In this document: positions 137-13,619 of the stretch, in pieces
How positions within the stretch are numbered: the stretch's first letter is position 1
Layout: each line of letters starts with the position of its first letter
Source: Hyphomicrobiales bacterium
GTDB taxonomy: Bacteria > Pseudomonadota > Alphaproteobacteria > Rhizobiales > Xanthobacteraceae
Assembly (NCBI GenBank): GCA_017305715.1
Contig: JAFKKG010000012.1
Coordinates: forward strand, 62,001-126,000
Reading direction: 5' to 3'
Length of the DNA stretch: 64,000 nt
Position numbers and translations under genes: made by a program
The notes under the pieces: model-generated
What the model saw: only the letters and a program-made list of their open reading frames with translations
Told to the model about the DNA's origin: nothing
Database searches by the model: none

Positions 137-209
137 GATGGTGACGCCAGCTATGTGCCTGGTGCGGTGACGCTGCGTGGCAACCTTCGTCGTTTTCGCA
201 AGCGAAGGC

Positions 210-256
210 TGGTGGGCCCGGCTGGACTCGAACCTGCAACCGGACCGTTACGAGCG
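210..256 (-). pseudogene. 3'-half remnant of the CAU-anticodon tRNA (putative island attachment repeat)
   Basis: These 47 bases match positions 9910-9956, the 3' part of the intact tRNA at 9910-9985, at 44 of 47 positions and in the same orientation. The three differences are C/T at the tip of the T arm, one in the variable region and one in the anticodon (CAT becomes CGT). Similarity stops abruptly after 256, so the 5' half (acceptor strand, D arm) is missing and it cannot fold as a tRNA. A detached 3' tRNA end at the far side of inserted DNA is the usual scar of integration into a tRNA gene. Confidence 0.8.
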
Positions 257-377: not shown

Positions 378-1115
378 TCACAGGGGGGCGGGCGAGAATG
401 CGTGGACGTCCTGCTCATACTGATCGATGTGTCGCGCGACCGCTTGATAGGCGGCTTCCGGGTTGGAAGCTTCGACCGCGGACAGAATGTCCTGGTGGCA
501 GATGACGATTCGTTCGCGGACGGCTCTGAGCATTTTGTGCGGGCTCATCACCGTGAGGTTTTTTATGATCGGCTCCAGCCATACCGGATATAGCCTGTTC
601 CCGGATGCGCGAGCCAACAGGGTATGAAAATCGATGTCTTCCTTGAAGAACGACTCCGCGTCCCCGATCGCGGCCTTCATCGTGCGAAGATTCTTCGTGA
701 GCGTCTTCAGGTCGGCTTCCGTCCGGTGTCTGGCAGCCAGTGTCGCAATGTGACCCTCAAGAAACCTTCGAGCGTCGATGAATTCCTCGAGCGGGATCGC
801 TTCACGAAGCAGGTGTTCCGACAATGCGACCGTCGTTTTCTGAAAGCCTCCGTCAATCACGAACACACCGCGCGCGGCGCTTGTCTCGACGATGCCTTTG
901 CTCTCCAGTATGTCGATGGCCTCACGCAGGACGGTCCGGCTTATTCCGAACGATCGACTGAGGAAGCGCTCACCGGGGAGCTTTGAACCCACGGTCATTC
1001 CGGAGGACCGGATATATTCCTCGATCTGTTCGGCCACGCCCGGCGAAAGGTTCTGCCGCGCGGGATGTGGAGAATGCGCGCCCGGGCTGACTCTCATAAT
1101 GTTCGGTACCTTCAC
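378..1115 (-). CDS. GntR-family (FadR subfamily) transcriptional regulator
   Basis: The N-terminal winged helix-turn-helix is clear (segments KLPGERFLSRSFGISRTVLR and EAIDILESKGIVE), followed by an all-helical FCD-type effector domain containing FLEGHIATLAARH and the ligand/metal-site style histidines of DIDFHTLL and VARHIDQYE. Length, about 245 residues, fits the FadR subfamily. The open frame extends upstream to 1295, but I favour the GTG at 1113-1115 because GAGGAAAGG precedes it by six bases; an ATG at 1095-1097 is the alternative. It is divergent from the catabolic genes that begin at 1514, and a FadR-type operator lies between them. It is therefore probably the local, ligand-responsive repressor of the island's operon. 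The effector is unknown. Confidence 0.88.
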   Translation of the reverse strand: MKVPNIMRVSPGAHSPHPARQNLSPGVAEQIEEYIRSSGMTVGSKLPGERFLSRSFGISRTVLREAIDILESKGIVETSAARGVFVIDGGFQKTTVALSEHLLREAIPLEEFIDARRFLEGHIATLAARHRTEADLKTLTKNLRTMKAAIGDAESFFKEDIDFHTLLARASGNRLYPVWLEPIIKNLTVMSPHKMLRAVRERIVICHQDILSAVEASNPEAAYQAVARHIDQYEQDVHAFSPAPL

Positions 1116-1341
1116 GTCCCGCCTTTCCTCGGAAATCAAATTGCCTACCCGCCAGGCGTTCATGCCACCAACGGAATAGCCTTTGCGCTGCGCAACGGAA
1201 AGCCCGGCGCGCCACAGGTCTATTCTGTCGCGGGACGCCTCCCGCAAGCAATCAGCAGCCAGTTCCTGTGCACGATGTGATTGAAATTTGCTCAATCAAG
1301 CTGCTTGCCAGCAAAAGATTAATGCCCTAGCGTGCAAGTCT

Positions 1342-1359
1342 AACTGGTCCAACCAGATT
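1342..1359. promoter_or_regulatory. FadR/GntR-type operator
   Basis: The sequence AACTGGTCCAACCAGATT contains the perfect dyad CTGGT-N3-ACCAG (1344-1356), the same architecture as E. coli FadR sites. It lies in the roughly 400-base divergent region between the GntR gene and the catabolic operon, so it is the natural site for autoregulation and control of the operon. Confidence 0.7.
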
Positions 1360-1376
1360 GAATATTGCTTAAAAGG

Positions 1377-1391
1377 CAAGGTTTTACCTTG
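1377..1391. promoter_or_regulatory. Second perfect dyad in the divergent promoter region
   Basis: CAAGGT-TTT-ACCTTG is a perfect 6-base inverted repeat with a 3-base spacer, 20 bases downstream of the FadR-type operator. It shares the GGT-N3-ACC core with that site, so it may be a second, weaker operator for the same regulator. A small RNA hairpin in the leader is the alternative. Confidence 0.4.
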
Positions 1392-1513
1392 TCAAAGCAG
1401 GTATTTGGGTGAGTGGACTCAAGAGAAGCGCGACAACGCTCTCGGCGCCTGGATGGGCGCCCGGGCCTGACGCGCCCGAAATAAAAGATGAGAGAACCGG
1501 GGGTATTGTAATC

Positions 1514-2182
1514 GTGTACGATCTCTTTCCTCTTCCGTCGCAAGTCGAGCCTCGGCTTCTCGACATTCTGCGCAAGGCCGAGCCGGCCACGATCGGTCAC
1601 TTCATGGACACCGGATTCATGGACCCCGCGATCCGCGGCTTGCTGCCTGATTTCCGCATTGCCGGCACCGCCATCACGGTCAGGATGCCTGGTCCCGACG
1701 GGACGATGATGCATTATGCGATTGGACAGGCGCGCCCTGGCGATATCATCGTCGTCGACCGCTGCCACGACCTCAAATACGCATGTCTGGGGGGTGCGGT
1801 CGCGTATGCCGCGAAGAAGGCGGGCGTTGCGGGCATCATCGTCGATGGTCTTGTGACCGACATCGGAGAATTGCGCCAATACGGGGTGCCGGTGTGGGCG
1901 CGCGGACTGTCGCCGGTCACCACCAAGCGCATGGGTCTTGATGGCGAGTTTTGCTCGACGATTTCCTGCGGTGGGGTTTCGGTGAAGCCGGGGGCTGCGG
2001 TGTTTGCCGACGAGAACGGGATTCTGGTCCTTGATGCGGATCAGATCGAGGCGGCCGCGACACGTGCGGTCGGCATGCAGCAAGAAGAAAAGAAGACGCT
2101 GGCGCGTCTCGATGCTGGGGAGAAGTACCCGGACATCATCGGCGCGACCCCGTTCATTCAAGAGCGTGCACGCATCCGATAG
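1514..2182 (+). CDS. RraA/HMG-aldolase-like family protein (paralogue 1)
   Basis: This is an RraA-fold protein of the family containing 4-hydroxy-4-methyl-2-oxoglutarate aldolases, which cleave hydroxy-oxo-diacids and decarboxylate oxaloacetate. Family marks are the GQARPGDIIVVD strand-turn, the AGIIVDG segment and the late PGAAVFADENGILVLD segment. Where catalytic family members read DGxxRD, this copy reads DGLVTD, so the Arg is Thr at about residue 115; the reaction may differ. I chose GTG 1514 because it gives the usual length of about 222 residues; the open frame begins at 1409. It is the first gene of the island operon behind the predicted operator. A second RraA-like gene with an intact Arg-Asp pair closes the operon. 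Confidence 0.75.
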   Translation: MYDLFPLPSQVEPRLLDILRKAEPATIGHFMDTGFMDPAIRGLLPDFRIAGTAITVRMPGPDGTMMHYAIGQARPGDIIVVDRCHDLKYACLGGAVAYAAKKAGVAGIIVDGLVTDIGELRQYGVPVWARGLSPVTTKRMGLDGEFCSTISCGGVSVKPGAAVFADENGILVLDADQIEAAATRAVGMQQEEKKTLARLDAGEKYPDIIGATPFIQERARIR

Positions 2183-2252
2183 CTGAATTGGCCGCGTGGC
2201 ATGCCGCGCGGCCCGGTCCTTCATCGCACTTTGTGCATTCCTTGGTATCCCA

Positions 2253-3641
2253 ATGGACATTTCACCGAAGCAACTGGCAAGCTTGCCGGTTCATGTACTT
2301 TCTGCGGAGATTGCCGCCCGGCGGCTTTCACCCGTCATGCTCGTCGAGGCCTATATCGCGCGGATCGAGGCTCTCGACGAAAAGCTTCATGCGTTCGTCG
2401 AGCCGTTCATCGACGATGCCAGGCTTGCCGCGGAGGCGGCGGACAAGGCGATACGCTCGGGACATTCCGTCGGGCCGCTGCATGGAATTCCGGTGGCGCT
2501 AAAGGATCTCGTTGAGCTGGAAGGGCGCTCGATCACCGGGGGCTCGCTGATCTGGAGCGACCGCAGGGCCGCGCGCACCGCGTCGCTTGCAAAAAAGATG
2601 ATTCAGGCCGGAATGATTGTGATCGGCCGCACGCACATGGTGGAGTTCGCGCTCGGCGGATGGGGAGCGAATCCCAAGATGGGTACGCCCTGGAATCCCT
2701 GGGATCTGCAGACGCATCGAATTCCCGGCGGATCGAGCAGCGGTTCAGCCGTGGCTGTCGCTGCGGGCATGGCCCCGTGGGCGATCGGCACCGATACCGG
2801 CGGCTCGGTTCGTCTGCCTGCCGCCTATTGCGGACTAACGGGCCTGAAGCCGACAGCCGGGCGGATCAGCAGCCATGGGCTGATGGCGCTCAGCTCGACG
2901 CTCGACACGGCCGGCGTGATCACCCGGTCGGTGGAGGATGCTGCGGTACTCTACGAACTGCTGCGAGACCGGAATACGCAGCGCGACGGTGGCTGCGATC
3001 CGCGCTCAAACCTGAAGCGCGGCATAGCCGGGATGAAGTTCGGAAAAATGCCGGACGAGGAACGAGAGGCCGTCGCTGCCGACGTGCTTGAGGCTTTTGA
3101 CCGCGCTGTCGATGTTCTGGCGGATGCGGGCGCAGACATCCAGCCAATTCGTTTGCCCTGTCGGTTCGACGATTACGCGGACATGTCCGCGCGCATCATG
3201 CTTGCCGAGGCGTATTCCGAGTTTGGCGCGTTCGCCGAGGATTCCAGTCTCGACATCGATGAGACGGTGCGCGGTCGGGTGCTCGCTGGAGCGAGCCTTT
3301 CGGCGCGGGATTACCTCAAGGCGCTTAGCGAACGGGCCGTCCTGAAGGAACAGTTCTCCGCAGCTTTCTCGGGCTTCGACGCGCTGCTGACGCCGACCGC
3401 GGCAACTCCGGCGATCCCGGTGGCCGCGATTCCTCCGCAAAGCAATCCCACGCGGTTCACCCGGGTTGCGAATTTCCTGGACCTTGCGGCGCTCTCGGTG
3501 CCGAACGGCCTCTCCGGCGAGGGACTTCCGATCGCGCTCCAAATCGTTTGCCGCGGTTTCGACGAAGCGACCGCACTGCGGATCGGCTGGGCCTACGAAA
3601 GCGCCACCGATTGGCATTCGCATCTTCCACCCGTGTTCTGA
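2253..3641 (+). CDS. Amidase-signature family amidohydrolase
   Basis: This is a cytoplasmic amidase of the amidase-signature family (462 residues), which hydrolyses carboxamides to acid plus ammonia through a Ser-cisSer-Lys triad. All three elements are visible: Lys near residue 84 in PVALKDLVELEG, the cis-Ser region GGSSSGSAVAVAAGM near 159-165, and the nucleophile Ser near 185 in GTDTGGSVRLP. The ATG at 2253 (MDISPKQLASL) starts the conserved fold; the open frame reaches 2196. It follows the RraA-like gene by 70 bases. It is not GatA by context, since no gatB or gatC is nearby, so a catabolic substrate amide is more likely. Confidence 0.88.
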   Translation: MDISPKQLASLPVHVLSAEIAARRLSPVMLVEAYIARIEALDEKLHAFVEPFIDDARLAAEAADKAIRSGHSVGPLHGIPVALKDLVELEGRSITGGSLIWSDRRAARTASLAKKMIQAGMIVIGRTHMVEFALGGWGANPKMGTPWNPWDLQTHRIPGGSSSGSAVAVAAGMAPWAIGTDTGGSVRLPAAYCGLTGLKPTAGRISSHGLMALSSTLDTAGVITRSVEDAAVLYELLRDRNTQRDGGCDPRSNLKRGIAGMKFGKMPDEEREAVAADVLEAFDRAVDVLADAGADIQPIRLPCRFDDYADMSARIMLAEAYSEFGAFAEDSSLDIDETVRGRVLAGASLSARDYLKALSERAVLKEQFSAAFSGFDALLTPTAATPAIPVAAIPPQSNPTRFTRVANFLDLAALSVPNGLSGEGLPIALQIVCRGFDEATALRIGWAYESATDWHSHLPPVF

Positions 3642-3828
3642 CGCGCGGTTGGCAACGGGCCGATGCTTCGACTGGCGACCGGTCCCATCGGCCCATACAG
3701 CAAAGGCGATCTGCACAGGCTTCGGGCTGTTCAGGTTGCTCTCTCGACGGAAGCTTCCACCGGACCCAGGCGGCACGCCAGTTCGGTTTCTCCACCGTGT
3801 CCAACACTCGAATGAGGAAGAAAGTGAA

Positions 3829-4944
3829 ATGATGAGGATGAATTCCGTATGCGCAATCGCGCTCGGTTGCGCACTATCGCTGGGGGCAGTTGCCGCCAGG
3901 GCAGAAGACAGTGCGCGCGTCACCGAGCTCAAGAAAATCGCGAGCGAAATGAAGCCGTTCTCGCTTCGCGTGCTTGGATTGCCGTCCGGTACGTCGGAGT
4001 GGAGCTTTCTCGATAAGCCGTTCTGGAATGACAAGGTCAAGGAACTCGGCGGCGGCAAGGTGACTGCTCAGCTCAGCAGCATGAGCGAGCTGAATCTTCA
4101 GGGCGGCGATGCCTTCAAGGCGACCGCGCAAGGCATGTTCGACGTGGCTGATCTCGTCGCCAACTACGGCGCCGGCGAGGTAATGCAACTCGACGCGCTG
4201 GATCTCGCTGGCGTGGCGGGGACCTATGAAGAGCAGCGAAAGATGCTCGATGCCTACATGCCGGTGCTGGCGGATGCTCTGAAGGACCGTTTCGGCATTG
4301 TGTTGCTTGGCGCCACGCCTTCCACCGCCCAGACCTTCTTCTGCAAGCCGGAAATTCGCAATCTGGCCGACCTGAAGGGCAAGAAGGTGCGTACCAGCAG
4401 TGCGTCGGTCGCCGATATGCTGTCCGGCCTCGGCGCGGTGCCAGTCACCATCGCCTTTGCCGAAGCGATTCCGGCCATGCAGCGCGGCGTGGTCGATTGC
4501 ATCGTCACCGGCACGATGTCGGCCAATACCGCAAAGGTGCCCGAGGTTGCTGATCACATCTATCCGTTGACGGTCGGCTGGGCGCCACGTGTGCGAATGG
4601 TGAGCAAGCAGCTCTGGAACAAGCTCGACCCGACCCAACGCAAGTGGATGGAAAAGGTCACCGAATACTATGTCCACGAGATGTCCGACCCGCTCGAGGT
4701 CCTGAATACCGAGCAGGGCATTCTGTGCTCCGCCGGCGCCGACACCTGCAAATACGACGGGCAGTTCGGGGTCAAGAAGGCCAAGATGGGACTCAGCAAG
4801 GTGTCCGACGATGATCGCACGGCGCTCCGCGGTGTCGTCGAAGCCAAGGTATTGCCTGCCTTTGCAAAGGCGTGCGGCGACAAGTGCGCCGCCCGCTGGC
4901 AGGACACCGTCGGCAAGGCGATGAATCTCAAAATGGTGAAGTAA
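3829..4944 (+). CDS. TRAP transporter DctP-family substrate-binding protein
   Basis: This is the periplasmic solute receptor of a tripartite ATP-independent (TRAP) transporter, 371 residues. A Sec signal peptide is evident (MMRMNSVCAIALGCALSLGA, cleavage after ARA). The mature part has the DctP-fold features: LADLKGKKVRT, FAEAIPAMQRGVVDCIVTG and the long helix EVADHIYPLT. The start is set by GAGGAAG eight bases before ATG 3829. The dctQ and dctM genes follow directly, so the system is complete. The binding pocket appears to use the Arg of KKVRT, the usual carboxylate ligand in this family, which favours an organic-acid substrate. The exact ligand cannot be read from sequence. Confidence 0.9.
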   Translation: MMRMNSVCAIALGCALSLGAVAARAEDSARVTELKKIASEMKPFSLRVLGLPSGTSEWSFLDKPFWNDKVKELGGGKVTAQLSSMSELNLQGGDAFKATAQGMFDVADLVANYGAGEVMQLDALDLAGVAGTYEEQRKMLDAYMPVLADALKDRFGIVLLGATPSTAQTFFCKPEIRNLADLKGKKVRTSSASVADMLSGLGAVPVTIAFAEAIPAMQRGVVDCIVTGTMSANTAKVPEVADHIYPLTVGWAPRVRMVSKQLWNKLDPTQRKWMEKVTEYYVHEMSDPLEVLNTEQGILCSAGADTCKYDGQFGVKKAKMGLSKVSDDDRTALRGVVEAKVLPAFAKACGDKCAARWQDTVGKAMNLKMVK

Positions 4945-4952
4945 CGAAGAGT

Positions 4953-4979
4953 GGCGGGAGATTTTCCAGATCTCCCGCC
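4953..4979 (+). terminator. Strong intercistronic stem-loop between dctP and dctQ
   Basis: Bases 4953-4962 (GGCGGGAGAT) pair perfectly with 4970-4979 (ATCTCCCGCC) around a 7-base loop. There is no T-run, so it is more likely a partial terminator or an mRNA-stabilising hairpin that raises receptor over membrane subunits than a full stop. Confidence 0.65.
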
Positions 4980-5029
4980 TCGCTCTGAACCCCGGGTTTC
5001 AATTGGCGATTGCTCAAAGGCTTTCCGAT

Positions 5030-5581
5030 ATGAGGAAACTTTCCCAGATCAGAGCGACTATCGAGATCTTGTCGCGCTACCTGACGTTGGTCACCGGCTA
5101 CATACTTTTTGCCGCCGGGCTCCTTGTCTGCTTCGACGTCATCGTTCGCCGGCTCTTCAATTACAGTCTGGCGGGCGCCGATGAATTGTCCGGATACGCG
5201 CTCGCTGCTGCAACCGCTGGCGGCTTGTCCTATGCGCTTTTTACCCAGAGCCATATCCGGATCGACGCGATCTACCGGCTTCTTCCGCTCAAGACCAAGG
5301 CCGTGCTGGATGTGCTCGCTGGGCTGTCGTTCGTTCTTGTCGCAGGTCTGCTCGCCTACATGGGGACGGCCGAGGTCATCGAATCGGCTACTTACCATAC
5401 CGTCGCAAGTACCCCATGGCGCACGCCGCTCTGGATTCCGCAGGCGGTGTGGGCGCTCGGGCTGATCCTTTTCGCTCTGGCTGCGATCGTAACGACCCTC
5501 GAGGCCATATTGAAACTGATGTCGGGCGATGCGGCCGGCGCGCACGCGCTGACGGGCATTTCCGAAGGATCAATCGAGTAA
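5030..5581 (+). CDS. TRAP transporter small permease (DctQ family)
   Basis: The 183-residue membrane protein has four predicted helices, the first near residues 15-40 (LTLVTGYILFAAGLLVCFDV). It carries the DctQ hallmarks VIVRRLFNYSLAGADELSGY and the HIRIDAIYRLLP stretch after helix 2. It forms the small inner-membrane subunit that pairs with DctM in Na+-driven solute uptake. The ATG at 5030 is preceded by AAAGG at good distance and keeps the normal length. The gene ends six bases before dctM and follows the dctP hairpin. Confidence 0.88.
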   Translation: MRKLSQIRATIEILSRYLTLVTGYILFAAGLLVCFDVIVRRLFNYSLAGADELSGYALAAATAGGLSYALFTQSHIRIDAIYRLLPLKTKAVLDVLAGLSFVLVAGLLAYMGTAEVIESATYHTVASTPWRTPLWIPQAVWALGLILFALAAIVTTLEAILKLMSGDAAGAHALTGISEGSIE

Positions 5582-5587
5582 GCGCCC

Positions 5588-6874
5588 ATGAGCCTCACCC
5601 TTATTTTCACAACCGTCTTTGTTTTTCTGCTGGCTCTGGGGCTTCCCGTTGCCGCAGTGATCATCATTATCGGATTGATGACCGAGTGGGTCTCGCCGGT
5701 TTCCTTTCTGGCAAGCCTTGGGCCAACGGCCTGGACGCAGTCGCAGAGCTACCTGCTCGTTTCCATCCCACTGTTCATTCTGTTCGGCGAAATTCTGGTC
5801 CGAAGTGGTATCGCCGGAAACATGTACGGTGCGATTACGCCCTGGTTGAACCGCGTGCCTGGAAAGCTGATGCAGACCAATATCGCGACGTCCGCGATTT
5901 TCGCCGCGACGTCGGGCTCCAGCGTGGCCACCGCGGCGACGGTCGCATCTGTCGCGATCCCGGAAATTCGCAAGGGGGGCTACAACGAACGTCTCTTCCT
6001 GGGGTCCATCGCAGCCGGCGGCACGCTCGGGATTTTGATTCCGCCGTCGATCAACATGATCGTGTATGGCGCGCTCACCAATACGTCGATCCCCCAGCTG
6101 TATCTCGCCGGCTTCGTTCCCGGGATATTGCTGATGCTGCTGTTCATGCTGGTGGCCGGAATCTGCTGTTTGTTCCGGCCGGACTGGGATGGGCAGGCCG
6201 TTAAGGCAACCTGGAAGGATCGCCTTCGTTCGCTCCCGGCCCTGCTGCCGCCGATTATGATCTTTCTCGTGGTGGTTGGATCGATCTATGCGGGCATTGC
6301 GACGCCCACGGAAGCAGCCGCGCTTGGCGTGTTGGCGTCGGTTCTGCTCGCCGCGGCGCATCGCAAGATGACCATCAGCCTTCTGAACGAGTCCATTCTC
6401 GCGACGATGCGCACCACGTCGATGCTGATCCTGATCATGATCGCCGCCTCGTTCCTCAACTTCGCCATCGGGTTCATGGGATTCACCAAGGCTGTCGAAG
6501 ACGCCATCGTCAATTCGAATCTGGGGCCCTACACGGTCATCGCCTGGATCATCGTTGCCTATCTCGTCCTGGGCTGCTTCCTCGACGGCCTCTCGATGAC
6601 GGTACTGACCGTCCCGATCCTGGCGCCAGCAATCGTCAAATTGGGGTTCGATCCCATCTGGTTCGGAATCATCGTGATCCTCTCGACGGAAATGGGACTT
6701 CTCACGCCGCCAGTCGGAATGAATTGCTACGTTGTGCAAGGTGTGCGCGGGCGAGGCTCGATTACTGATGTCTTCGTCGGTGTCGCTCCCTACGCCGCCG
6801 TCCTCATGCTGTTCATCGTAATGCTTATTGTCTTCCCGCAGATCGCACTGTGGCTGCCCGATTTGCTGAAGTGA
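5588..6874 (+). CDS. TRAP transporter large permease (DctM family)
   Basis: The 428-residue, roughly 12-helix protein is the Na+-coupled transport subunit of the TRAP system. Family marks include IFAATSGSSVATAATVASVA and AAGGTLGILIPPSINMIVYG, and late in the protein MGLLTPPVGMNCYVVQG, where the two pseudo-symmetric GxLxPPS/GLxTPPVG loops form the transport site. It starts six bases after dctQ. With the upstream receptor it completes the importer of the island and is co-transcribed with the downstream amidohydrolase. Confidence 0.92.
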   Translation: MSLTLIFTTVFVFLLALGLPVAAVIIIIGLMTEWVSPVSFLASLGPTAWTQSQSYLLVSIPLFILFGEILVRSGIAGNMYGAITPWLNRVPGKLMQTNIATSAIFAATSGSSVATAATVASVAIPEIRKGGYNERLFLGSIAAGGTLGILIPPSINMIVYGALTNTSIPQLYLAGFVPGILLMLLFMLVAGICCLFRPDWDGQAVKATWKDRLRSLPALLPPIMIFLVVVGSIYAGIATPTEAAALGVLASVLLAAAHRKMTISLLNESILATMRTTSMLILIMIAASFLNFAIGFMGFTKAVEDAIVNSNLGPYTVIAWIIVAYLVLGCFLDGLSMTVLTVPILAPAIVKLGFDPIWFGIIVILSTEMGLLTPPVGMNCYVVQGVRGRGSITDVFVGVAPYAAVLMLFIVMLIVFPQIALWLPDLLK

Positions 6875-6896
6875 TTAACCGAGCGGCCAGCACGAG

Positions 6897-8111
6897 ATGG
6901 AAATCATGAAGACTGTTATTCGCTGTGGGACGCTGTTCGATGCGACATTCGCCGGTCCACGACGCAATATGGCGGTTGTCGTCAGTGACGGCCGGATCGT
7001 CGAAGTCATTGGTGGCGACGAGCTTGCGCGCCGCCCCGACCTGGGCGACGCCGAGGTCGTGGATGCGTCGACCCACTGGGTGATGCCGGGGCTCATCAAT
7101 GTCCACGAGCATCTGGTTTTCCGGGACCTGATCGGAAATCCGATCGGCACCATGGCCGCCTCTCAGCCCCAGCTTACGCTCAACGCGGTACGCAATGCCC
7201 TGACCGCCTTGCGGCGTGGCTGGACCACGGTGCGCGACATGGGAGCCGCGCACGGCATCTCGTTCGCGTTCCAGGACTACATCGGCAAGGGGCTGCTGCC
7301 CGGACCGCGGGTTCTGGCGTGTGGCTCGCCGATTTGCGTCACGGGAGGCCATGCGAATCCCGTCTGCATCCAGGCCGATGGTCCTTACGAAGTTCGCAAG
7401 GCGGTGCGTTCTCAACTCTTTGCAGGTGCCGATTTTATCAAGGTGATGGCGAGCCATGATCCGATCCTGATCGACGGGCTGGAGAAGACCCGGCCGGAAA
7501 TGGCTGCGGACGAAATTCGCGCCGCGTTCGATGAGGCGAAGGCGCATGGCAAGCGTACGGCCTGCCACGTCATGGGCACTGTCGCGATAGGTCGCGTGCT
7601 CGACGCTGGTGTTGACGTGATCTCCCACGGCTTTTACCTCAACGACGACCTCGCCCAGCGGATGGTGGAGCAGGGTGTCTACCTCGACCCGACCCTCAGT
7701 TCGTACGGGCGCCAGACGATCAACCCGCAACTCCAGCGTGGCGCGAAATGGACCGAGGATCACCTGCCGCTTATTCCTGCGATGGAATCCGCGTTCCGGG
7801 CCGCGGTTCGCGCGGGTGTGAAGATCGTGACAGGCACTGATTCCGCCGGCCGGTATGCGGAAGACGTGGCCATGATGCGTGAACTCGGTCTCGGTGCCGA
7901 GGAAAGTCTGTTTGCCTGCACACGCAACGCTGCCGCGGCCCTTGGACTGTCTCATGAAGTCGGAACGATCGAAGTCGGAAAGGTGGCGGACCTGGTCGTT
8001 CTGGACGGCGACCCGCTGGCAGATCCCTACAAGCTGGAGGCAGTCAAGGTGGTCATCCAGGCCGGACGCGCCATGACGCCGGAGTCGATCACGCTGCATT
8101 CGTTGGTTTGA
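6897..8111 (+). CDS. Metal-dependent amidohydrolase (imidazolonepropionase/prolidase-like)
   Basis: This is a 404-residue amidohydrolase-superfamily enzyme with the split beta domain typical of imidazolonepropionase-like and Xaa-Pro dipeptidase-like members. Metal ligands are visible: HEH in MPGLINVHEHLVF near residues 67-73, His in KRTACHVMG, His in DVISHGFYL and Asp in IVTGTDSAGRY. The C-terminal strand VGKVADLVVLDGDPL is diagnostic. Family members hydrolyse cyclic amides, ureas or peptide-like C-N bonds. In this operon ring opening of an imported cyclic amide, ahead of the amidase, is a reasonable guess but only a guess. A second ATG lies at 6906. Confidence 0.85.
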   Translation: MEIMKTVIRCGTLFDATFAGPRRNMAVVVSDGRIVEVIGGDELARRPDLGDAEVVDASTHWVMPGLINVHEHLVFRDLIGNPIGTMAASQPQLTLNAVRNALTALRRGWTTVRDMGAAHGISFAFQDYIGKGLLPGPRVLACGSPICVTGGHANPVCIQADGPYEVRKAVRSQLFAGADFIKVMASHDPILIDGLEKTRPEMAADEIRAAFDEAKAHGKRTACHVMGTVAIGRVLDAGVDVISHGFYLNDDLAQRMVEQGVYLDPTLSSYGRQTINPQLQRGAKWTEDHLPLIPAMESAFRAAVRAGVKIVTGTDSAGRYAEDVAMMRELGLGAEESLFACTRNAAAALGLSHEVGTIEVGKVADLVVLDGDPLADPYKLEAVKVVIQAGRAMTPESITLHSLV

Positions 8112-8140
8112 AAGAAGCTGCACTGGACAGGTCGAAACGA

Positions 8141-8863
8141 ATGAATATTAAACGCATTGGGCTGCTGGTTCCGTCGACCAACACGTCCGTGGAAGCAGAC
8201 TTTCAGCAAACATGTCCCGAGGGAGTGACAACCCATTCCCAGAGACTTTGGATTCCCGCCGGGGAATTGACGGAAGATCTTCTCGACGAGATGAACTCAC
8301 GCCTCGAGGAGAGTGCCGTTGCTCTCGCGTCGGCCAATGTCGATCTGATCGTCTACGGGTGTACCTCGGGCAGCTTCTACAAGGGGCTCGAATGGGACGA
8401 GGGGGTTGTCGAGCGCATTCACGCCGCAACCGGCATACGGGCTTTCACCACCAGCCAGGCCGTGTCGCGAGCGTTGCAGACGCTCGGCGTTCGCCGCCTG
8501 TCGGTCGCGACCCCCTATATGGCCTGGACCAATGAGCGCTTGCGCAAATACCTCGAGAAACTCGGCTTCGAGGTCGTCAACATCGAAAGCGATGAGAGAG
8601 CCGCCGCGGGCGGGCATCGCTTCATCAACGATCAGGACCCGGCGCAGATCGTCGCCTTTGCAAGCTCGATCTTCAGGCAGGAAGCCGATGCGTTGTTCTG
8701 CTCGTGCACCGCCTGGCGCGCCCGGGAGGCGGCGGATGCGATCGAGGCGTCGATCGGAAAGCCTGTCGTGACCTCGAACCAGGCCACGCTGTGGCATGCG
8801 TGCCGCGAGATCGGCATCTCGGGTCCGATCGATGGCGGAGGGGGCCAACTCCTGCGCCGCTGA
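8141..8863 (+). CDS. Asp/Glu racemase superfamily protein (maleate isomerase / arylmalonate decarboxylase-like)
   Basis: The 240-residue protein opens with IKRIGLLVPSTNTSVEADF, the phosphate-loop-like start found in maleate cis-trans isomerases and arylmalonate decarboxylases. Two cysteines sit at the expected active-site places: Cys74 in VYGCTSGSF and Cys187/Cys189 in LFCSCTAW. Family members isomerise maleate to fumarate, racemise acidic amino acids or decarboxylate malonates. The ATG 8141 is chosen because the fold starts there; the open frame begins at 8108. It lies 29 bases after the amidohydrolase. Amidase plus maleate-isomerase-like enzyme resembles the end of maleamate-type pathways. 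Confidence 0.82.
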   Translation: MNIKRIGLLVPSTNTSVEADFQQTCPEGVTTHSQRLWIPAGELTEDLLDEMNSRLEESAVALASANVDLIVYGCTSGSFYKGLEWDEGVVERIHAATGIRAFTTSQAVSRALQTLGVRRLSVATPYMAWTNERLRKYLEKLGFEVVNIESDERAAAGGHRFINDQDPAQIVAFASSIFRQEADALFCSCTAWRAREAADAIEASIGKPVVTSNQATLWHACREIGISGPIDGGGGQLLRR

Positions 8864-8953
8864 TCGAGACTTCCGGAATATCCGTACGACTTACAGAACG
8901 CCGGCCAGAAATCTGGTGGCAAAGCAGCACTCAAAGAAGAGGTACATCTCGAC

Positions 8954-9586
8954 ATGATCGGAGATAGACGAAATCCGCCGCCGAAGACCGCGGATCCGGC
9001 CCTGATTGAAGCATTCGGTACCATGGCGACCGCAATCCTGAGCGACAACCTTGCGCGCCTCTCCGGTGTGGTCGGCTTGCGACAGTTTCACCGAAAGGGA
9101 AAGCTGGTCGGGTCTGCCTTTACGGTGCGCACCCGCTCGGGTGACAATCTGGCGATCCATCAGGCGCTCGGCCAGGTCCGGCCCGGCGACGTGATTGTCG
9201 TGGACGGCGGTGGAGACACCAGCCGCGCGCTGGTCGGCGAAATCATGAAGGCGATCGCGGAAAGCCGCGGCGCCGTGGGATTTGTCATCGATGGCGCCAT
9301 TCGCGACACCGCCGTATTTGCTGCCGCAGACTTTCCCTGCTACGCGCGTGGATACACGCATCGAGGGCCATACAAGAACGGTCCGGGTGAAATCAACGTG
9401 CCGGTATCCATTGGCGGTTTGGTGATCGAGCCAGGTGACATCGTCGTGGGAGACGAGGACGGCATCGTTGCTTTCCCGCAGTCGGTCGCACCAGCGTTGC
9501 TGGAGGCGGCTCGGGCGCAGGCAGCCAAGGAGGCCGACATCATGAAGACGATCAGCGAAGGCCGATACCAGAACGAGTATGGTTGA
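8954..9586 (+). CDS. RraA-family aldolase/decarboxylase-like protein (paralogue 2)
   Basis: This 210-residue RraA-fold protein retains the catalytic signature missing from its paralogue at the start of the operon: VIDGAIRD with Arg117 and Asp118, plus the preceding GQVRPGDVIVVDG loop and the ending EPGDIVVGDEDGIVAFP. The known family chemistry is Mg2+-dependent retro-aldol cleavage of 4-hydroxy-4-methyl- or 4-carboxy-4-hydroxy-oxoadipate-type acids to pyruvate, and oxaloacetate decarboxylation. As last gene of the island operon it is a plausible final step delivering pyruvate. It should not be called the RNase E inhibitor RraA on this evidence. Confidence 0.82.
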   Translation: MIGDRRNPPPKTADPALIEAFGTMATAILSDNLARLSGVVGLRQFHRKGKLVGSAFTVRTRSGDNLAIHQALGQVRPGDVIVVDGGGDTSRALVGEIMKAIAESRGAVGFVIDGAIRDTAVFAAADFPCYARGYTHRGPYKNGPGEINVPVSIGGLVIEPGDIVVGDEDGIVAFPQSVAPALLEAARAQAAKEADIMKTISEGRYQNEYG

Positions 9587-9909
9587 TTCGAGCGTTGTGA
9601 CGATTCCTGAGGCATTGCCTGACGCGCCCCGCTCAGGAATGTCTATCGGCGTTCAAACTTGGTATGCCGAATGACAGGCAGTTTTTCGGACATGGTGAGG
9701 ATGCTGGAGACAACGCGCCTCAAGGATGATCTTCATTTCACCGTAGAGGACGGAGCCAACGGCTTCTGGCCAGTGTTTAGCTGGGGCATGTCGGCGGCTT
9801 TTGCTCGGCGATCATGATTGAGCCGATTGCCGCCTGTTGCTTCCAGTGAGGAGCGAGGTGATGAAACGGTCCGCGGAAAAATCGCCAGTATTGCAAGCCA
9901 TTGATTTAC
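9587..9909. other. Gap between island operon and tRNA; only a weak short ORF
   Basis: No recognisable gene or integrase remnant was found. A 48-codon ATG frame runs 9671-9817 on the plus strand, but it lacks a convincing ribosome-binding site and resembles nothing I know. If an integrase was once carried here, as expected next to a tRNA target, it has gone. Confidence 0.4.
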
Positions 9910-9985
9910 TGGTGGGCCCGGCAGGACTCGAACCTGCAACCAGACCGTTATGAGCGGCCGGCTCTAACCATTGAGCTACAGGCCC
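9910..9985 (-). tRNA. tRNA with CAU anticodon, probably tRNA-Ile2
   Basis: The 76-base reverse strand folds as a full cloverleaf. Acceptor GGGCCTG pairs with CGGGCCC, the D stem is GCTC/GAGC, the anticodon stem is GGCCG/CGGTC with loop CTCATAA, the T arm is GCAGG-TTCGAGT-CCTGC, and CCA is encoded. The anticodon CAT (9950-9952) means Met or lysidine-modified Ile2. The short D loop AATGGTTA and acceptor resemble E. coli ileX, so Ile2 is favoured. Its 3' end points into the putative island, whose far end carries a copy of its 3' half. Confidence 0.93.
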
Positions 9986-10068: not shown

Positions 10069-11061
10069 TTAATCCACCGAAACGCCGGAAAATTCAACCA
10101 CTTTGCGCCATTTCTCGGTCTCGTCTGCGACCAGCTTGCCGAATTCGGCCGGCGTCATCGGCTTCGGGATGCCGCCGACCTCGGCGAGCCGCGCCACCAG
10201 CTTGGGGTCCTTCAAGGCTTCGCCGACCGCCTTGTTGAGGATATCGATGACTTCCCGCGGCGTGCCCTTAGGCACCGAAATGCCATAGAAGCCGACCGAC
10301 TCGAATCCCGGCACGGTTTCGGCGATCGCGGGCACGTCGGGCACGGTCGGCCAGCGCTGCGGCGAAGTGACGCCGAGCGCCCGCACGCTGCCGCCGCGCG
10401 CCTGCTCGAGCGCCGACGGCAGATTGTCGAAGATCAGCTGTACCTTGTCGGAAATGATGTCCGGAAACGCCAGCGCCGAGCCGCGATAGGGCACATGCAG
10501 CATGTCGCATTTGGTCATCGCCTTGAACAGCTCGGCGGACATATGCACCGAGGTGCCGTTGCCCGATGAGGCGTAGGAGATCTTGCCCGGGTTGGCCTTG
10601 CAGTAATCGATGAATTCCTTGACGGTCTTGGCGGGCGTCGCGTTTGACACGACCAGCATGTTGGTGAGCTGCATGATGCTGGCGACCGGCGCGGTGTCGC
10701 GCAGGAAATCATATGGCAGCTTCTTGTACAGCGAGGTCGAGATCGCGTTGTTGGGGGCGACGAACAGCAGCGTGTAACCGTCGGGGGGCGACGTGATGGC
10801 CGCTGCGGCGGCGATATTGCCGCCGGAACCGGTGCGGTTCTCGACCACGAATTGCTGGTTGAAATGGTCCGACAGCCACTGGCTCATGATGCGCGCAACG
10901 ATGTCGACCGGGCCGCCAGCGGCAAAACCGATCAGCCAGCGCACCGGGCGGTTGGGATAATCGGCGGCGGTGGAGGGCGAGGTGCCGGCCGCCAGGCTCA
11001 AAAGGAAAACCAGGCCAAAAAGGGCTTGTCGCGAAAATCCGATCATTATGCTTCCCGTCAT
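10069..11061 (-). CDS. Bug/TctC-family periplasmic solute receptor (TTT system)
   Basis: This is a complete 330-residue tripartite tricarboxylate transporter receptor. A Sec signal peptide (FGLVFLLSLAAG, cleavage near TAA) is followed by the family start DYPNRPVRWLIGFAAGGPVD, the motif VVENRTGSGGNIAAAA, and the C-terminal AEFGKLVADETEKWRKV. Such receptors bind small carboxylates or similar solutes. No TctA or TctB membrane gene is in the window, so it is an orphan receptor, as is common in this family. The alternative start ATG at 11044-11046 is also plausible. It is divergent from the TAXI receptor at 11166. Confidence 0.92.
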   Translation of the reverse strand: MTGSIMIGFSRQALFGLVFLLSLAAGTSPSTAADYPNRPVRWLIGFAAGGPVDIVARIMSQWLSDHFNQQFVVENRTGSGGNIAAAAAITSPPDGYTLLFVAPNNAISTSLYKKLPYDFLRDTAPVASIMQLTNMLVVSNATPAKTVKEFIDYCKANPGKISYASSGNGTSVHMSAELFKAMTKCDMLHVPYRGSALAFPDIISDKVQLIFDNLPSALEQARGGSVRALGVTSPQRWPTVPDVPAIAETVPGFESVGFYGISVPKGTPREVIDILNKAVGEALKDPKLVARLAEVGGIPKPMTPAEFGKLVADETEKWRKVVEFSGVSVD

Positions 11062-11165
11062 TTTCTTGTTAACCTTGCGGCCATGCTTTCACAAAAGTCC
11101 GCAACTGCCTACAACCTCCGCTGCGCGTCGATTAATCACTTATGCGGACACGCTTGAGGCCGAAC

Positions 11166-12131
11166 ATGAAACTCGCTCATATGGTCTGCGCCGGCGCTAT
11201 GCTGCTGGCGGGCGGCGCTGCGGCGCAAGATGGAGGCAAGGCCATTACGAAAACCACGATCAGTTTGGGAACCGCGACCCCGGGAGGGGGCTTTCCCGTC
11301 TATGGCGATGCGTTCACGGAAGTGATGAATGCCGCCGACCCGACGCTGTCGATCGAGCCGCGCAACACCACGGGCAGCAACGAGAACATCCCGCTGCTGG
11401 AACAGGACAAGCTCGACATCGCGCTGGTGGCGGGCGAGCCTTCCTACGAGGCCTTCATGGGCATCGGGCGGCCCGCGACCAGGCTGAAGATCCTGACCGC
11501 GATGTACTCCAGCCCCGGCATGTTCGTGGTGCGCGCCGACAGCCCCTACAAGACGATTCGCGATCTCGTCGGCCAGCCGGTGGCGTTCGGCGCCAAGGGG
11601 TCGGGCCTGCCGATCCTGTCGCGCTACATCCTCGACGGGATCGGGCTGAAGCAGGACGAGGACTTCAAGTCGATCTATCTCGACCGCGCCGGTGATGGGC
11701 CGGCCATGGTGCAGGACGGACGGGCCGCGGCGCTGTGGGGCGCCGGCATCGGCTGGCCCGGTTTTGCGGCCATGGCGGCAGCGCCCGGCGGCGCCCGTTT
11801 CATCGCCCCCGATGCCGGCGAGATCGCGCAAGTCCGCGCCAAGCACACCTTTCTCAAGCCGCTGACGGTGCCCGCCAACAGCTATCCGAACCAGCCCACG
11901 GCGATCGCTTCGATCGGCTCCTGGAGCTTTGTCCTCGTGCGCGAAAGCCTGCCGGACGATGTCGCCTATCGGCTGGCCAAGACGCTGCACGGGGCGGAGG
12001 GCGACCTGTGCAAGCGGCTGCCGCAGGCCTGCGAGACGACAGCGGTGAACACGGTCGCCGCCGCGCCGAATGTCGGGCTGATCCATCCGGGCGTGTTGAA
12101 ATATTTCCGGGAGATCGGGGTGGTGAAGTAG
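11166..12131 (+). CDS. TAXI-family TRAP solute receptor
   Basis: A 321-residue exported protein of the TAXI (TRAP-associated extracytoplasmic immunogenic) receptor family. After a signal peptide ending GGAAAQ come the typical segments LGTATPGGGFPVYGDAF, NTTGSNENIPLLEQDKLDIA and IRDLVGQPVAFGAKGSG, with a late MVQDGRAAALWGAG loop. ATG 11166 is preceded by GAGG six bases upstream; a frame-extending ATG at 11142 is less likely. The usual fused DctQM permease is absent from the window, so this is another orphan receptor. The dyad after its stop may end transcription. Confidence 0.88.
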   Translation: MKLAHMVCAGAMLLAGGAAAQDGGKAITKTTISLGTATPGGGFPVYGDAFTEVMNAADPTLSIEPRNTTGSNENIPLLEQDKLDIALVAGEPSYEAFMGIGRPATRLKILTAMYSSPGMFVVRADSPYKTIRDLVGQPVAFGAKGSGLPILSRYILDGIGLKQDEDFKSIYLDRAGDGPAMVQDGRAAALWGAGIGWPGFAAMAAAPGGARFIAPDAGEIAQVRAKHTFLKPLTVPANSYPNQPTAIASIGSWSFVLVRESLPDDVAYRLAKTLHGAEGDLCKRLPQACETTAVNTVAAAPNVGLIHPGVLKYFREIGVVK

Positions 12132-12145
12132 AGGGGCGAATAGGG

Positions 12146-12191
12146 AGTAGCGAATGGCGAATAGGGAAGGTCGTTTGGACCATTCGCTACT
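12146..12191. repeat. Perfect 12-base inverted repeat between convergent genes
   Basis: AGTAGCGAATGG (12146-12157) is the exact reverse complement of 12180-12191. The CGAATAG/GCGAATGG unit also recurs several times on each arm between 12137 and 12210. The position between two convergent stops suggests a bidirectional terminator built from a repeated element. Confidence 0.7.
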
Positions 12192-12213
12192 CGCCACTCG
12201 CCATTCGCTCTCT

Positions 12214-13440
12214 TCACTTCTTCGCCATCCCGCACGCCGGATCGATCGGGCCGAACGCTTCGTCGCCGGGGATCTTGGCCAGGATCTTGTAATAGTCCCA
12301 CGGATATTTTGACTCTTCCGGTTTCTTGACCTCGACCAGCCAGAGGTCATGCACCATCAGATTGTCCTCGCGCAGCTTGCCGTTGCGGGCGAAGAAATCC
12401 TCGACCGGCTTCTCGCGCATCTTGGCGGCGACCTTCAGCGGATCGTCGGTGCCGGAATCCTTGATCGCGTTCAGATAATACGTGACCGAGGAATAGACGC
12501 CGGCCTGCCACATCGTCGGCATCCGGTTCATCTTGGCGAAATAGCGCTTCGACCATTCGCGGGTCTTGTCGTCCAGATCCCAGTAGAACGAGGTCGTCAG
12601 CAGCAGGCCCTGCGCCGCCGGCAGTCCCAGCGAATGAATGTCGGTGATCAGCGCCAGCAGTGCCGCCATCTGCTGGCCGCCCTTGAACACGCCGAATTCC
12701 GAACCGGTCTTGATCTCGTTCATGTTGTTGGGTGGGCCGGCCGCGATGCCGATGATCTTGGCTTTTGACGCCTGCGCCTGCAGCACGAAGGACGATAAAT
12801 CAGGTGTCGCGAGCGGTGGCCGCACCGAACCCAGCACCTTGCCGCCATTGGCGGTGATCACGGTAGAGGCGTCACGCTCCAGCGAATGGCCGAACGCGTA
12901 GTCGTCGGTGATGAAGAACCAGCTGTCGCCGCCGCGCTTGACCACGGCCTGCGCGGTGCCGACCGCCAGCGCGCGGGTGTCGAACACCCATTGCATCGCA
13001 TAGGGCGAGCAGAATTTGCCGTGGAAATCCGCCGTGCCGGTGGAGTGGGTGATGAACAGCTTCTTCTTTTCGTTGGCGACGTTCTGCACCGCGAGGCCGA
13101 CCGCCGACACCGGCACGTCGACGATCAGATCGACCTGGTCGACATCGTACCAGCGCCGCGCGATGCCGCCGCCGATATCCGGCTTCAACTGATGGTCGCC
13201 GACGATCAGGCTGATCGGCTTGCCCAGCACCTTGCCGCCGAAATCGTCGATCGCCATCTGTGCGGCCGTGACCGAGCCCTGGCCGGTCGGCGTGGACGCC
13301 GGGCCGTTCATGTCGGTGAGAACGCCGATCTTGACGATGTCGTCGGAAACTTGCGCGAGCGCCGCTGTGGACGCCAATGTCGCGGCTGCAAGCGCGCCGA
13401 ATACGGATAGGCTGCGTATGGACAAGTTCTTGGCGAACAT
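12214..13440 (-). CDS. ABC transporter substrate-binding protein, branched-chain amino acid type
   Basis: A 408-residue periplasmic binding protein of the Leu/Ile/Val-type ABC family (peripla_BP_6). A signal peptide (VFGALAAATLASTAALAQ) precedes the characteristic N-terminal KIGVLTDMNGPAS, GQGSVTAAQMAIDDFGGKV and the IARRWYDVDQVDLIVDVPVS region. The start at 13440 is supported by GGAGG eight bases before the ATG. Substrates of this subfamily range well beyond amino acids, including aromatic acids and urea. No LivHMGF permease or ATPase genes are adjacent, so it is an orphan receptor here. Confidence 0.9.
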   Translation of the reverse strand: MFAKNLSIRSLSVFGALAAATLASTAALAQVSDDIVKIGVLTDMNGPASTPTGQGSVTAAQMAIDDFGGKVLGKPISLIVGDHQLKPDIGGGIARRWYDVDQVDLIVDVPVSAVGLAVQNVANEKKKLFITHSTGTADFHGKFCSPYAMQWVFDTRALAVGTAQAVVKRGGDSWFFITDDYAFGHSLERDASTVITANGGKVLGSVRPPLATPDLSSFVLQAQASKAKIIGIAAGPPNNMNEIKTGSEFGVFKGGQQMAALLALITDIHSLGLPAAQGLLLTTSFYWDLDDKTREWSKRYFAKMNRMPTMWQAGVYSSVTYYLNAIKDSGTDDPLKVAAKMREKPVEDFFARNGKLREDNLMVHDLWLVEVKKPEESKYPWDYYKILAKIPGDEAFGPIDPACGMAKK

Positions 13441-13619
13441 CCGGTCTCCTCCCTCTGGATCGGCACATTGGCCGTTGTGTCTGCGGGCGGTTGCGGCCGC
13501 CATTTGGTCTCATTTGCAACTAATCGGCGCTGGCGTCAACTTGGCCGGAGGTAGGGGGCCGGCTGCCGGCGGTATCGGGTTCTGTTTATTTCCGGCCCGA
13601 TTCAGGGCATACGCGCTCC

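What the first reader, a model, noticed from the sequence alone, without database searches (positions are those of the whole stretch)
378..9586. Possible undescribed amide/dicarboxylate catabolic pathway
The set GntR, RraA-like, amidase, TRAP importer, amidohydrolase, maleate isomerase/Asp-Glu racemase-like enzyme and RraA-like aldolase is compact, co-oriented and controlled by one divergent regulator. I do not know a described pathway with this combination. Ring opening, deamidation, isomerisation or decarboxylation and retro-aldol release of pyruvate would fit the chemistry of the families, suggesting a cyclic imide or amidated hydroxy-diacid as substrate.
Basis: inference. Interest (0 to 1): 0.75.

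Follow-up and report, generated by a model that had tools for sequence, protein, structure and literature searches.

The report
Horizontally acquired amide/lactam catabolic gene island
A nine-gene island between a bacterial tRNA gene and a copy of that gene's end encodes uptake and breakdown genes whose importer belongs to a family that often sits beside 5-oxoproline (pyroglutamate) genes, so a 5-oxoproline-like ring amide is the likely food; the combination is unusual but each part is a known kind.

Summary
Observation confirmed. Nine intact genes at 378-9586: a divergent FCD-GntR regulator and eight co-oriented genes. A palindrome in the divergent gap (1344-1356) occurs once in 64 kb. Among 265 genus genomes the whole set was found only in this one.

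New anatomy: tRNA-Met (9910-9985) and a 48-bp copy of its 3' half (209-256) bracket the set: a ~9.7-kb island with no integrase gene, at a tRNA hot spot.

Substrate: relatives of the TRAP importer sit beside a D-glutamate-cyclase homologue (PF07286) at 19 of 29 loci (controls 0 of 19), an amidase at 13 and a 5-oxoprolinase (pxp) gene at 7. Its three best sequence matches among solved receptors are titled pyroglutamate binders.

Enzymes: amidase and amidohydrolase keep their motifs; the AMDase-like protein keeps two cysteines and models closest to maleate isomerases, narrowly. The last RraA keeps the aldolase Arg-Asp; the first lacks the essential Arg, as do the 13 relatives aligned, so it is probably no pyruvate aldolase.

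New variant of a known kind; no step is biochemically shown.

The parts
209..256 (-). copy of the 3' half of tRNA-Met (attachment-site-like direct repeat), left end of the island
   Evidence: 94% over 48 bp with 9909-9956; ends agree within a few bases with most of the eight other truncated copies aligned
378..1097 (-). GntR-family regulator with FCD ligand domain
   Evidence: PF00392 57 bits, PF07729 82 bits; start chosen at ATG 1097 by eye
1344..1356 (.). candidate operator CTGGTCCAACCAG in the divergent gap
   Evidence: unique in 64 kb, 0 expected; fits TNGTNNNACNA (consensus recalled), a form shared by the tested PxpR site of C. glutamicum (passage of PMC13274462)
1514..2182 (+). RraA1: RraA-like protein of an Arg-less subfamily (GTG start inferred, 1409 possible)
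   Evidence: PF03737 113 bits; Thr in place of the aldolase Arg; start codons listed
2253..3641 (+). amidase-signature hydrolase
   Evidence: PF01425 333 bits; Lys and Gly-Ser-Ser-Ser-Gly motifs present (by eye, motif recalled)
3829..4944 (+). TRAP solute receptor DctP
   Evidence: PF03480 85 bits; nearest solved receptors 2pfy, 2pfz, 6wgm, titled pyroglutamate binders
5003..5581 (+). TRAP small permease DctQ (start uncertain)
   Evidence: PF04290 94 bits
5588..6874 (+). TRAP large permease DctM
   Evidence: PF06808 283 bits; tree places it in a fork of 23 rows, 19 of them cyclase-linked, on a long branch
6897..8111 (+). metal-dependent amidohydrolase, Xaa-Pro dipeptidase/carboxypeptidase/ochratoxinase-like
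   Evidence: PF01979 154 bits; aligned to 9kov and 2qs8 with HxH, K, H, H, D kept (read by eye; metal roles recalled)
8141..8863 (+). maleate-isomerase/arylmalonate-decarboxylase-like enzyme with two cysteines (start 8141 or 8108)
8954..9586 (+). RraA2: RraA-like protein keeping Arg-Asp, candidate 2-oxo-acid aldolase/decarboxylase
   Evidence: PF03737 161 bits; above the cut-off of subfamily PRK06201, 303 against 231
9910..9985 (-). tRNA-Met (CAT), right end of the island
   Evidence: ARAGORN

Best explanation
A catabolic island acquired by lateral transfer and inserted at the 3' end of a tRNA-Met gene. Its TRAP importer takes up a carboxylated ring amide of the 5-oxoproline (pyroglutamate) type. 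The metal amidohydrolase and/or the amidase open the ring or remove a side-chain amide. The two-cysteine enzyme isomerises or epimerises the product, and RraA2 cleaves or decarboxylates the derived 2-oxo acid. The GntR/FCD protein represses the set from the palindrome at 1344-1356 until the substrate or a product binds. Shown by computation: gene content, the bracketing tRNA copies, the unique palindrome, kinship of the importer, conserved catalytic motifs, loss of the Arg in RraA1. Inferred: lateral origin, substrate, reaction order, repression. Not assigned: what RraA1 does, and how a 2-oxo acid forms (no transaminase or oxidase in the island; a DAO-family gene lies left of it).
For: DctP relatives: 29 loci (26 genomes) against 19 offset control stretches of the same genomes: PF07286 homologue 19 of 29 v 0 of 19, amidase 13 v 0, DUF2848 12 v 0; any Pxp subunit homologue 7 of 29 v 0 of 19, families checked on two loci. 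An Allorhizobium plasmid has GntR, GGT, an amidohydrolase of another type, LysR, DctPQM, DUF2848, amidase, PF07286; Sagittula has a GLUCM-like cyclase beside DctPQM. Own DctM falls in a fork of 23 rows (99/98), 19 of them cyclase-linked; own DctP is sister to the Sagittula one (97/91). Nearest solved receptors by sequence are 2pfy, 2pfz, 6wgm, all titled pyroglutamate binders. In the same draw of 398 genomes DctP relatives occur in 5 of the 11 non-own genomes that have RraA1, 0.78 expected, p 4e-4. RraA1 relatives have an amide hydrolase close by in 10 of 13 loci. In C. glutamicum a divergent GntR repressor senses 5-oxoproline and controls its uptake and breakdown genes (abstract and passages of PMC13274462).
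Against: The island has neither the cyclase nor PxpABC; this genome carries a cyclase homologue and two PxpA homologues elsewhere. Own DctP is only 26-38% identical to the 27 relatives aligned and on a long branch (1.51), so its ligand may have changed. Structural Z does not single out pyroglutamate binders: 2pfy 33.1 and 2pfz 32.8, but others up to 32.7 and isethionate and ectoine receptors 31.6 and 31.4; 6wgm only rank 20. None of the 29 DctP loci has the island's amidohydrolase or an RraA, nor GGT, CN hydrolase, creatininase or M20. Single Pxp subunits do not differ significantly from controls (p 0.07-0.14), and the Pxp and DUF2848 queries came from two of the 29 loci. The name of PF07286 rests on a mammalian protein that carries DUF1445 and DUF4392 (passages of PMC5339696). 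The counts treat related genomes as independent, and the 10 of 13 count for RraA1 has no random control.
Confidence: 0.45

Rival explanations
1. Maleamate or cyclic-imide route: ring opening by the amidohydrolase, deamidation by the amidase, cis-trans isomerisation of maleate by the two-Cys enzyme, fumarate to central metabolism, with the RraA proteins in side roles.
Against: Arylmalonate decarboxylase entries score nearly as high (32.0, 31.5), so the enzyme type is not settled. The importer's family is tied to 5-oxoproline genes. A maleate product would not need an aldolase. The protein is below both curated family cut-offs (EutA 137 of 318, AMDase 110 of 225).
Confidence: 0.23
2. Uptake and hydrolysis of an N-acyl amino acid, dipeptide or carbamate: the amidohydrolase acts as a carboxypeptidase or aminoacylase and the amidase trims the product.
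For: Solved relatives include an Xaa-Pro dipeptidase, an arginine carboxypeptidase and ochratoxinase; phenylurea and molinate hydrolases are further off. Relatives of RraA1 sit by gamma-glutamyltranspeptidase, creatininase and M20 peptidases.
Against: The Xaa-Pro dipeptidase equivalog scores 228 against a cut-off of 500. The importer is of the TRAP organic-acid kind. Two RraA genes and a maleate-isomerase-like gene are unexplained.
Confidence: 0.17
3. No single pathway: a mosaic of scavenging genes joined on a mobile element, some of them idle.
For: The modules have different nearest relatives: RraA1 plus amidase as on a Comamonas plasmid (66% and 53%), TRAP as in cyclase clusters, the amidohydrolase best 39%. 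The whole set was found in 1 of 265 genus genomes, the own.
Against: All nine frames are intact, closely spaced and led by one divergent regulator with a unique palindrome.
Confidence: 0.15

Closest known systems
TRAP-linked 5-oxoproline-type gene clusters (PF07286 homologue, DctPQM, DUF2848, amidase, sometimes Pxp genes) seen here in the phylum sample
   Same: DctPQM of the same family; amidase in 13 of 29 loci; the Allorhizobium plasmid copy also has a GntR/FCD gene and an amidohydrolase
   Different: The island has no PF07286, DUF2848 or Pxp gene; it adds two RraA-like proteins, a maleate-isomerase-like enzyme and a different amidohydrolase
C. glutamicum pxpR-pxpTABC (PMC13274462, abstract and passages seen)
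   Same: Divergent GntR regulator, uptake gene and amide-ring hydrolysis; operator of the TNGTNNNACNA form
   Different: APC transporter instead of TRAP; ATP-dependent PxpABC instead of amidase/amidohydrolase; no aldolase or isomerase described in what I saw
Bordetella pertussis DctP6/DctP7 pyroglutamate receptors (2pfz, 2pfy)
   Different: Only 20-21% identical over the structure alignment; ligand of the island receptor untested
P. putida HMG/CHA aldolase (3noj) and RraA proteins
   Same: Sequence family of both RraA genes; RraA2 keeps Arg-Asp
   Different: RraA1 has Thr for the essential Arg; RraA2 scores below both aldolase equivalog cut-offs
Maleate isomerases (2xec, 4fq7) and arylmalonate decarboxylase
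   Same: Fold, and the two cysteines of the isomerases
   Different: 26-28% identical; below curated EutA and AMDase cut-offs; substrate unknown

Membership tests
TRAP transporter (DctPQM) | receptor, small permease and large permease together | tested here: met
   three Pfam matches in consecutive genes
TRAP transporter (DctPQM) | receptor arginine that pairs with the ligand carboxylate | tested here: inconclusive
   an Arg (position 163 of the alignment's first row) is invariant in 30 rows; its equivalence to SiaP Arg-147 (PMC4646407 passages) was not aligned
pyroglutamate-binding DctP subfamily | nearest kinship to DctP6/DctP7 | tested here: inconclusive
pyroglutamate-binding DctP subfamily | binds pyroglutamate | not testable with these tools
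   needs protein
TRAP-linked 5-oxoproline cluster | PF07286 homologue or PxpABC beside the transporter | tested here: not met
   no hit in the window or in the left flank L147; homologues elsewhere in the genome
TRAP-linked 5-oxoproline cluster | transporter of that clade | tested here: met
   DctM in a fork with 19 cyclase-linked of 22 others, support 99/98; long branch
RraA-type class II pyruvate aldolase (RraA1) | Arg-123/Asp-124 pair of the P. putida enzyme | tested here: not met
   Arg in 0 of 14 RraA1 rows (Thr in 13, Cys in 1), Asp in 14 of 14; Arg to Ala below detection, R123K kcat down 181-fold (PMC5065237 passages)
RraA-type class II pyruvate aldolase (RraA2) | Arg-123/Asp-124 pair | tested here: met
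   Arg-Asp in own RraA2 and 3 of 3 genus relatives aligned
RraA-type class II pyruvate aldolase (RraA2) | curated equivalog cut-off | tested here: not met
   PRK09262 132 of 179; ligK_PcmE 123 of 304.5
maleate isomerase | two catalytic cysteines | tested here: met
   Cys in YGCTSG and CSCTAW aligned to cysteines of 4fq7
maleate isomerase | acts on maleate | not testable with these tools
   needs assay
tRNA-integrated genomic island | direct repeat of the tRNA 3' end on the downstream side | tested here: met
   same geometry in 12 of 12 fragments near the intact gene, own included
tRNA-integrated genomic island | integrase | tested here: not met
   none among the nine island genes; no relative of the tRNA-Met-linked integrase in this genome at E 1e-60
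tRNA-integrated genomic island | empty site in a relative | tested here: inconclusive
   83 bp of G401 match window 175-256, but most of it is the tRNA copy and the 100-nt flank score does not beat shuffles

The most novel reading that the evidence does not exclude
A 5-oxoproline-type route that opens the lactam without the ATP-dependent oxoprolinases: the metal amidohydrolase/amidase pair replaces PxpABC, and the Arg-less RraA1 subfamily, which recurs near amide and lactam hydrolases, is a new enzyme activity on the opened product (for instance a 4-substituted glutamate that RraA2 later cleaves to pyruvate).
Probability: 0.12. Interest if true: 0.65.

Novelty: new variant of a known kind. Interest (0 to 1): 0.4.

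Why it matters
It turns an open-ended guess about substrate into a short list that one binding assay can settle. It describes a recurrent TRAP-cyclase-amidase neighbourhood, in some genomes with oxoprolinase genes; in the paper passages I saw, Bordetella is the only TRAP case named for 5-oxoproline. It also flags an RraA subfamily (14 of 14 rows without the essential Arg) that should not be annotated as pyruvate aldolase.

Tried and rejected
Led nowhere. Scan of genome contigs with the amidohydrolase: 234 relatives, 80 kept, best 39% identity; in these 80 loci no more than one or two island genes per locus at E 1e-6. Amidohydrolase in 248 family genomes: only the own genome at E 1e-60. AMDase-like protein: 3 of 398 phylum genomes at 1e-30, own included. 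Sigma-70 scan of the divergent gap: no site. Empty-site comparison: inconclusive. Paper searches for the gene combination (0), for D-glutamate cyclase, 5-oxoproline and TRAP (0 with two of three), for tRNA islands with catabolic genes (3 listed, judged by title) and for pyroglutamate with TRAP (3 listed) gave no description of this set. A recalled idea, the legume metabolite methyleneglutamine as aldolase source, was searched badly (one term sufficed, 67,688 papers, 0 occurrences in the 8 listed) and dropped.

Errors and limits of mine. In one search the hydantoinase B query was translated in a wrong frame (20 stops), so its 0 of 29 means nothing. In some searches the simple gene finder misplaced genes of some GC-rich loci (L150, L151, L154, L112, L116), and the neighbours scanned were chosen by reading, so the 10 of 13 is a lower bound without control. 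Of 31 non-own DctP places I fetched 29 (G852 and G630 left out as near copies of G820 and of G564/G665). Of 20 control stretches 19 existed, one cut short at 7.8 kb; one control has an M20 hit and one a DctM hit. The lists are capped. The output was cut, so L183, L184 and parts of L182 and L164 were not seen. The genus is not named by the tools; Bradyrhizobium is my guess.
Full report
1. What is there. The window is contig C36:62001-126000 of a 7.45-Mb genome in 51 contigs. Reading left to right it is: GntR/FCD regulator 378-1097 on the minus strand; then on the plus strand RraA1 1514-2182, amidase 2253-3641, DctP 3829-4944, DctQ 5003-5581, DctM 5588-6874, amidohydrolase 6897-8111, maleate-isomerase/AMDase-like 8141-8863, RraA2 8954-9586. 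The genes are closely spaced. The divergent gap of about 0.4 kb holds one perfect palindrome, CTGGTCCAACCAG at 1344-1356, found nowhere else in 64 kb. It fits the form TNGTNNNACNA (consensus recalled); that looser pattern alone is expected about once in 11.5 kb. The tested operator of the 5-oxoproline repressor PxpR of C. glutamicum, agattgttcaacaatct, has the same form (passage of PMC13274462). No sigma-70-like site was found in the gap.

2. It is an island. ARAGORN finds one tRNA gene in the window, tRNA-Met(CAT) at 9910-9985, minus strand. A 48-bp copy of its 3' half lies at 209-256 in the same orientation, 94% identical, downstream of the tRNA 3' end, as expected for insertion at a tRNA. 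The bracketed DNA has 60.5% GC against 64.9% and 65.2% in the 15 kb on either side, but 63.3% in the rest of the window, so the shift is modest. In 265 genus genomes, own included, the set as a whole was found only here. Truncated copies of this tRNA occur in other genus genomes; of eight aligned, most end within a few bases of the own one. In 16 genomes, most chosen because they held several copies, 12 fragments lie within 75 kb of the intact gene, all 12 on its 3' side in the same orientation. A tyrosine recombinase (PF00589) lies about 40 bp from such a fragment in G429, and its 96% relative does so in G470. Relatives were found in 8 of 19 genomes, not in the own one at E 1e-60, and none of the nine island genes is an integrase. 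A clean empty site was not shown.

4. What the enzymes can do. Amidase: signature family, 333 bits. Amidohydrolase: solved relatives include an Xaa-Pro dipeptidase, an arginine carboxypeptidase and ochratoxinase, with HxH, K, H, H and D kept in the two alignments printed (read by eye); it is far below the dipeptidase equivalog cut-off (228 of 500). Two-Cys protein: model pLDDT 89.7 from 3 rows; best Z to maleate isomerases (33.5-32.7), then arylmalonate decarboxylase entries (32.0-28.2), with racemases far below (17.6 and less); both cysteines align with those of 4fq7. RraA2: Arg-Asp kept, above the cut-off of the unnamed subfamily PRK06201, below both aldolase equivalogs. RraA1: the Arg is Thr in 13 and Cys in 1 of 14 rows, while the Asp is kept in 14 of 14. 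In the P. putida enzyme the Ala change was below detection and R123K lowered kcat 181-fold (passages of PMC5065237). RraA1 is thus a separate subfamily, also marked by an invariant Gly-His near the N-terminus in the 13 rows. Its relatives (11 of 398 phylum genomes besides the own, plus two plasmid loci) have a GGT, creatininase, CN hydrolase, M20, hydantoinase, N-formylglutamate hydrolase or amidase close by in 10 of 13 loci (not seen in L150, L156, L158 among the genes scanned; genes to scan were picked by reading; no random control). DctP relatives occur in 5 of the 11 non-own genomes that have RraA1, 0.78 expected, p 4e-4, two of the five being one genus.

5. Modules. RraA1 and the amidase have relatives together on a Comamonas plasmid (66% and 53%). 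The importer is of the cyclase-cluster kind. The tail (amidohydrolase, two-Cys enzyme, RraA2) was not met as a unit in the loci fetched; RraA2 alone has relatives of 71-74% in the 11 genus loci read. The operon thus looks like a new joining of known modules on a transferred piece. Just left of the island, outside the window except for its last 136 bases, lie a LysR gene and a TTT receptor (by reading) around a DAO-family oxidoreductase, hydantoinase A and hydantoinase B, another amide-ring operon that could supply the oxidase missing from the island. That link is speculation.

6. Verdict. Observation confirmed; interpretation partly supported. Best reading: import and hydrolysis of a 5-oxoproline-type lactam acid followed by isomerisation and aldol cleavage or decarboxylation (0.45), with a maleamate/imide route (0.23), an N-acyl amino acid route (0.17) and a mosaic without one pathway (0.15) as rivals. 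Nothing biochemical is shown. I rate it a new variant of a known kind, interest 0.4. That this combination is not in print rests (0 papers holding 4 of 5 gene terms) and; most subscription papers are not held.

Noticed in passing
window 209-256 and 9910-9985; G313, G235, G348, G288, G276, G400, G434, G282: tRNA-Met(CAT) looks like an insertion hot spot in the genus: cassettes of unlike content between the gene and copies of its 3' half, e.g. a Rieske oxygenase with ABC-type genes in G313 (L163) and a TRAP set in G348 (L179); I saw no integrase in these two in the gene lists (by reading).
   Followed up: partly
G255:C1:8441616-8477933 (L173, L174): Five tRNA-Met 3' fragments in direct orientation within 36 kb, about 6 Mb from the intact gene, with cassettes of about 3-15 kb between them; one holds an amidase, DUF2848 and ABC-type genes (by reading). 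Looks like an array of att-bounded cassettes away from the tRNA.
   Followed up: partly
L175:16066-17268 (G429) and G470:C1:6127531-6128730: Tyrosine recombinase about 40 bp from a tRNA-Met fragment, the likely integrase of this att family; relatives in 8 of 19 genomes searched, none in the own genome at E 1e-60.
   Followed up: yes
left of the window, L147:12644-19136, ending at window 136: LysR, DAO-family oxidoreductase, hydantoinase A, hydantoinase B, TTT receptor operon directly beside the island.
   Followed up: partly
L160 (G343), L161 (G401): At the same tRNA in two other species the 3' side holds other amide genes: CN hydrolase and formamidase (G343), CN hydrolase (G401).
   Followed up: no
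L231, L236 and 10 further DctP loci: DUF2848 (PF11010) sits near the TRAP set in 12 of 29 DctP loci, so it may belong to 5-oxoproline-type metabolism.
   Followed up: partly
window 10069-13503: Three solute-receptor-like genes in a row right of the tRNA without permease genes between them (by reading).
   Followed up: no
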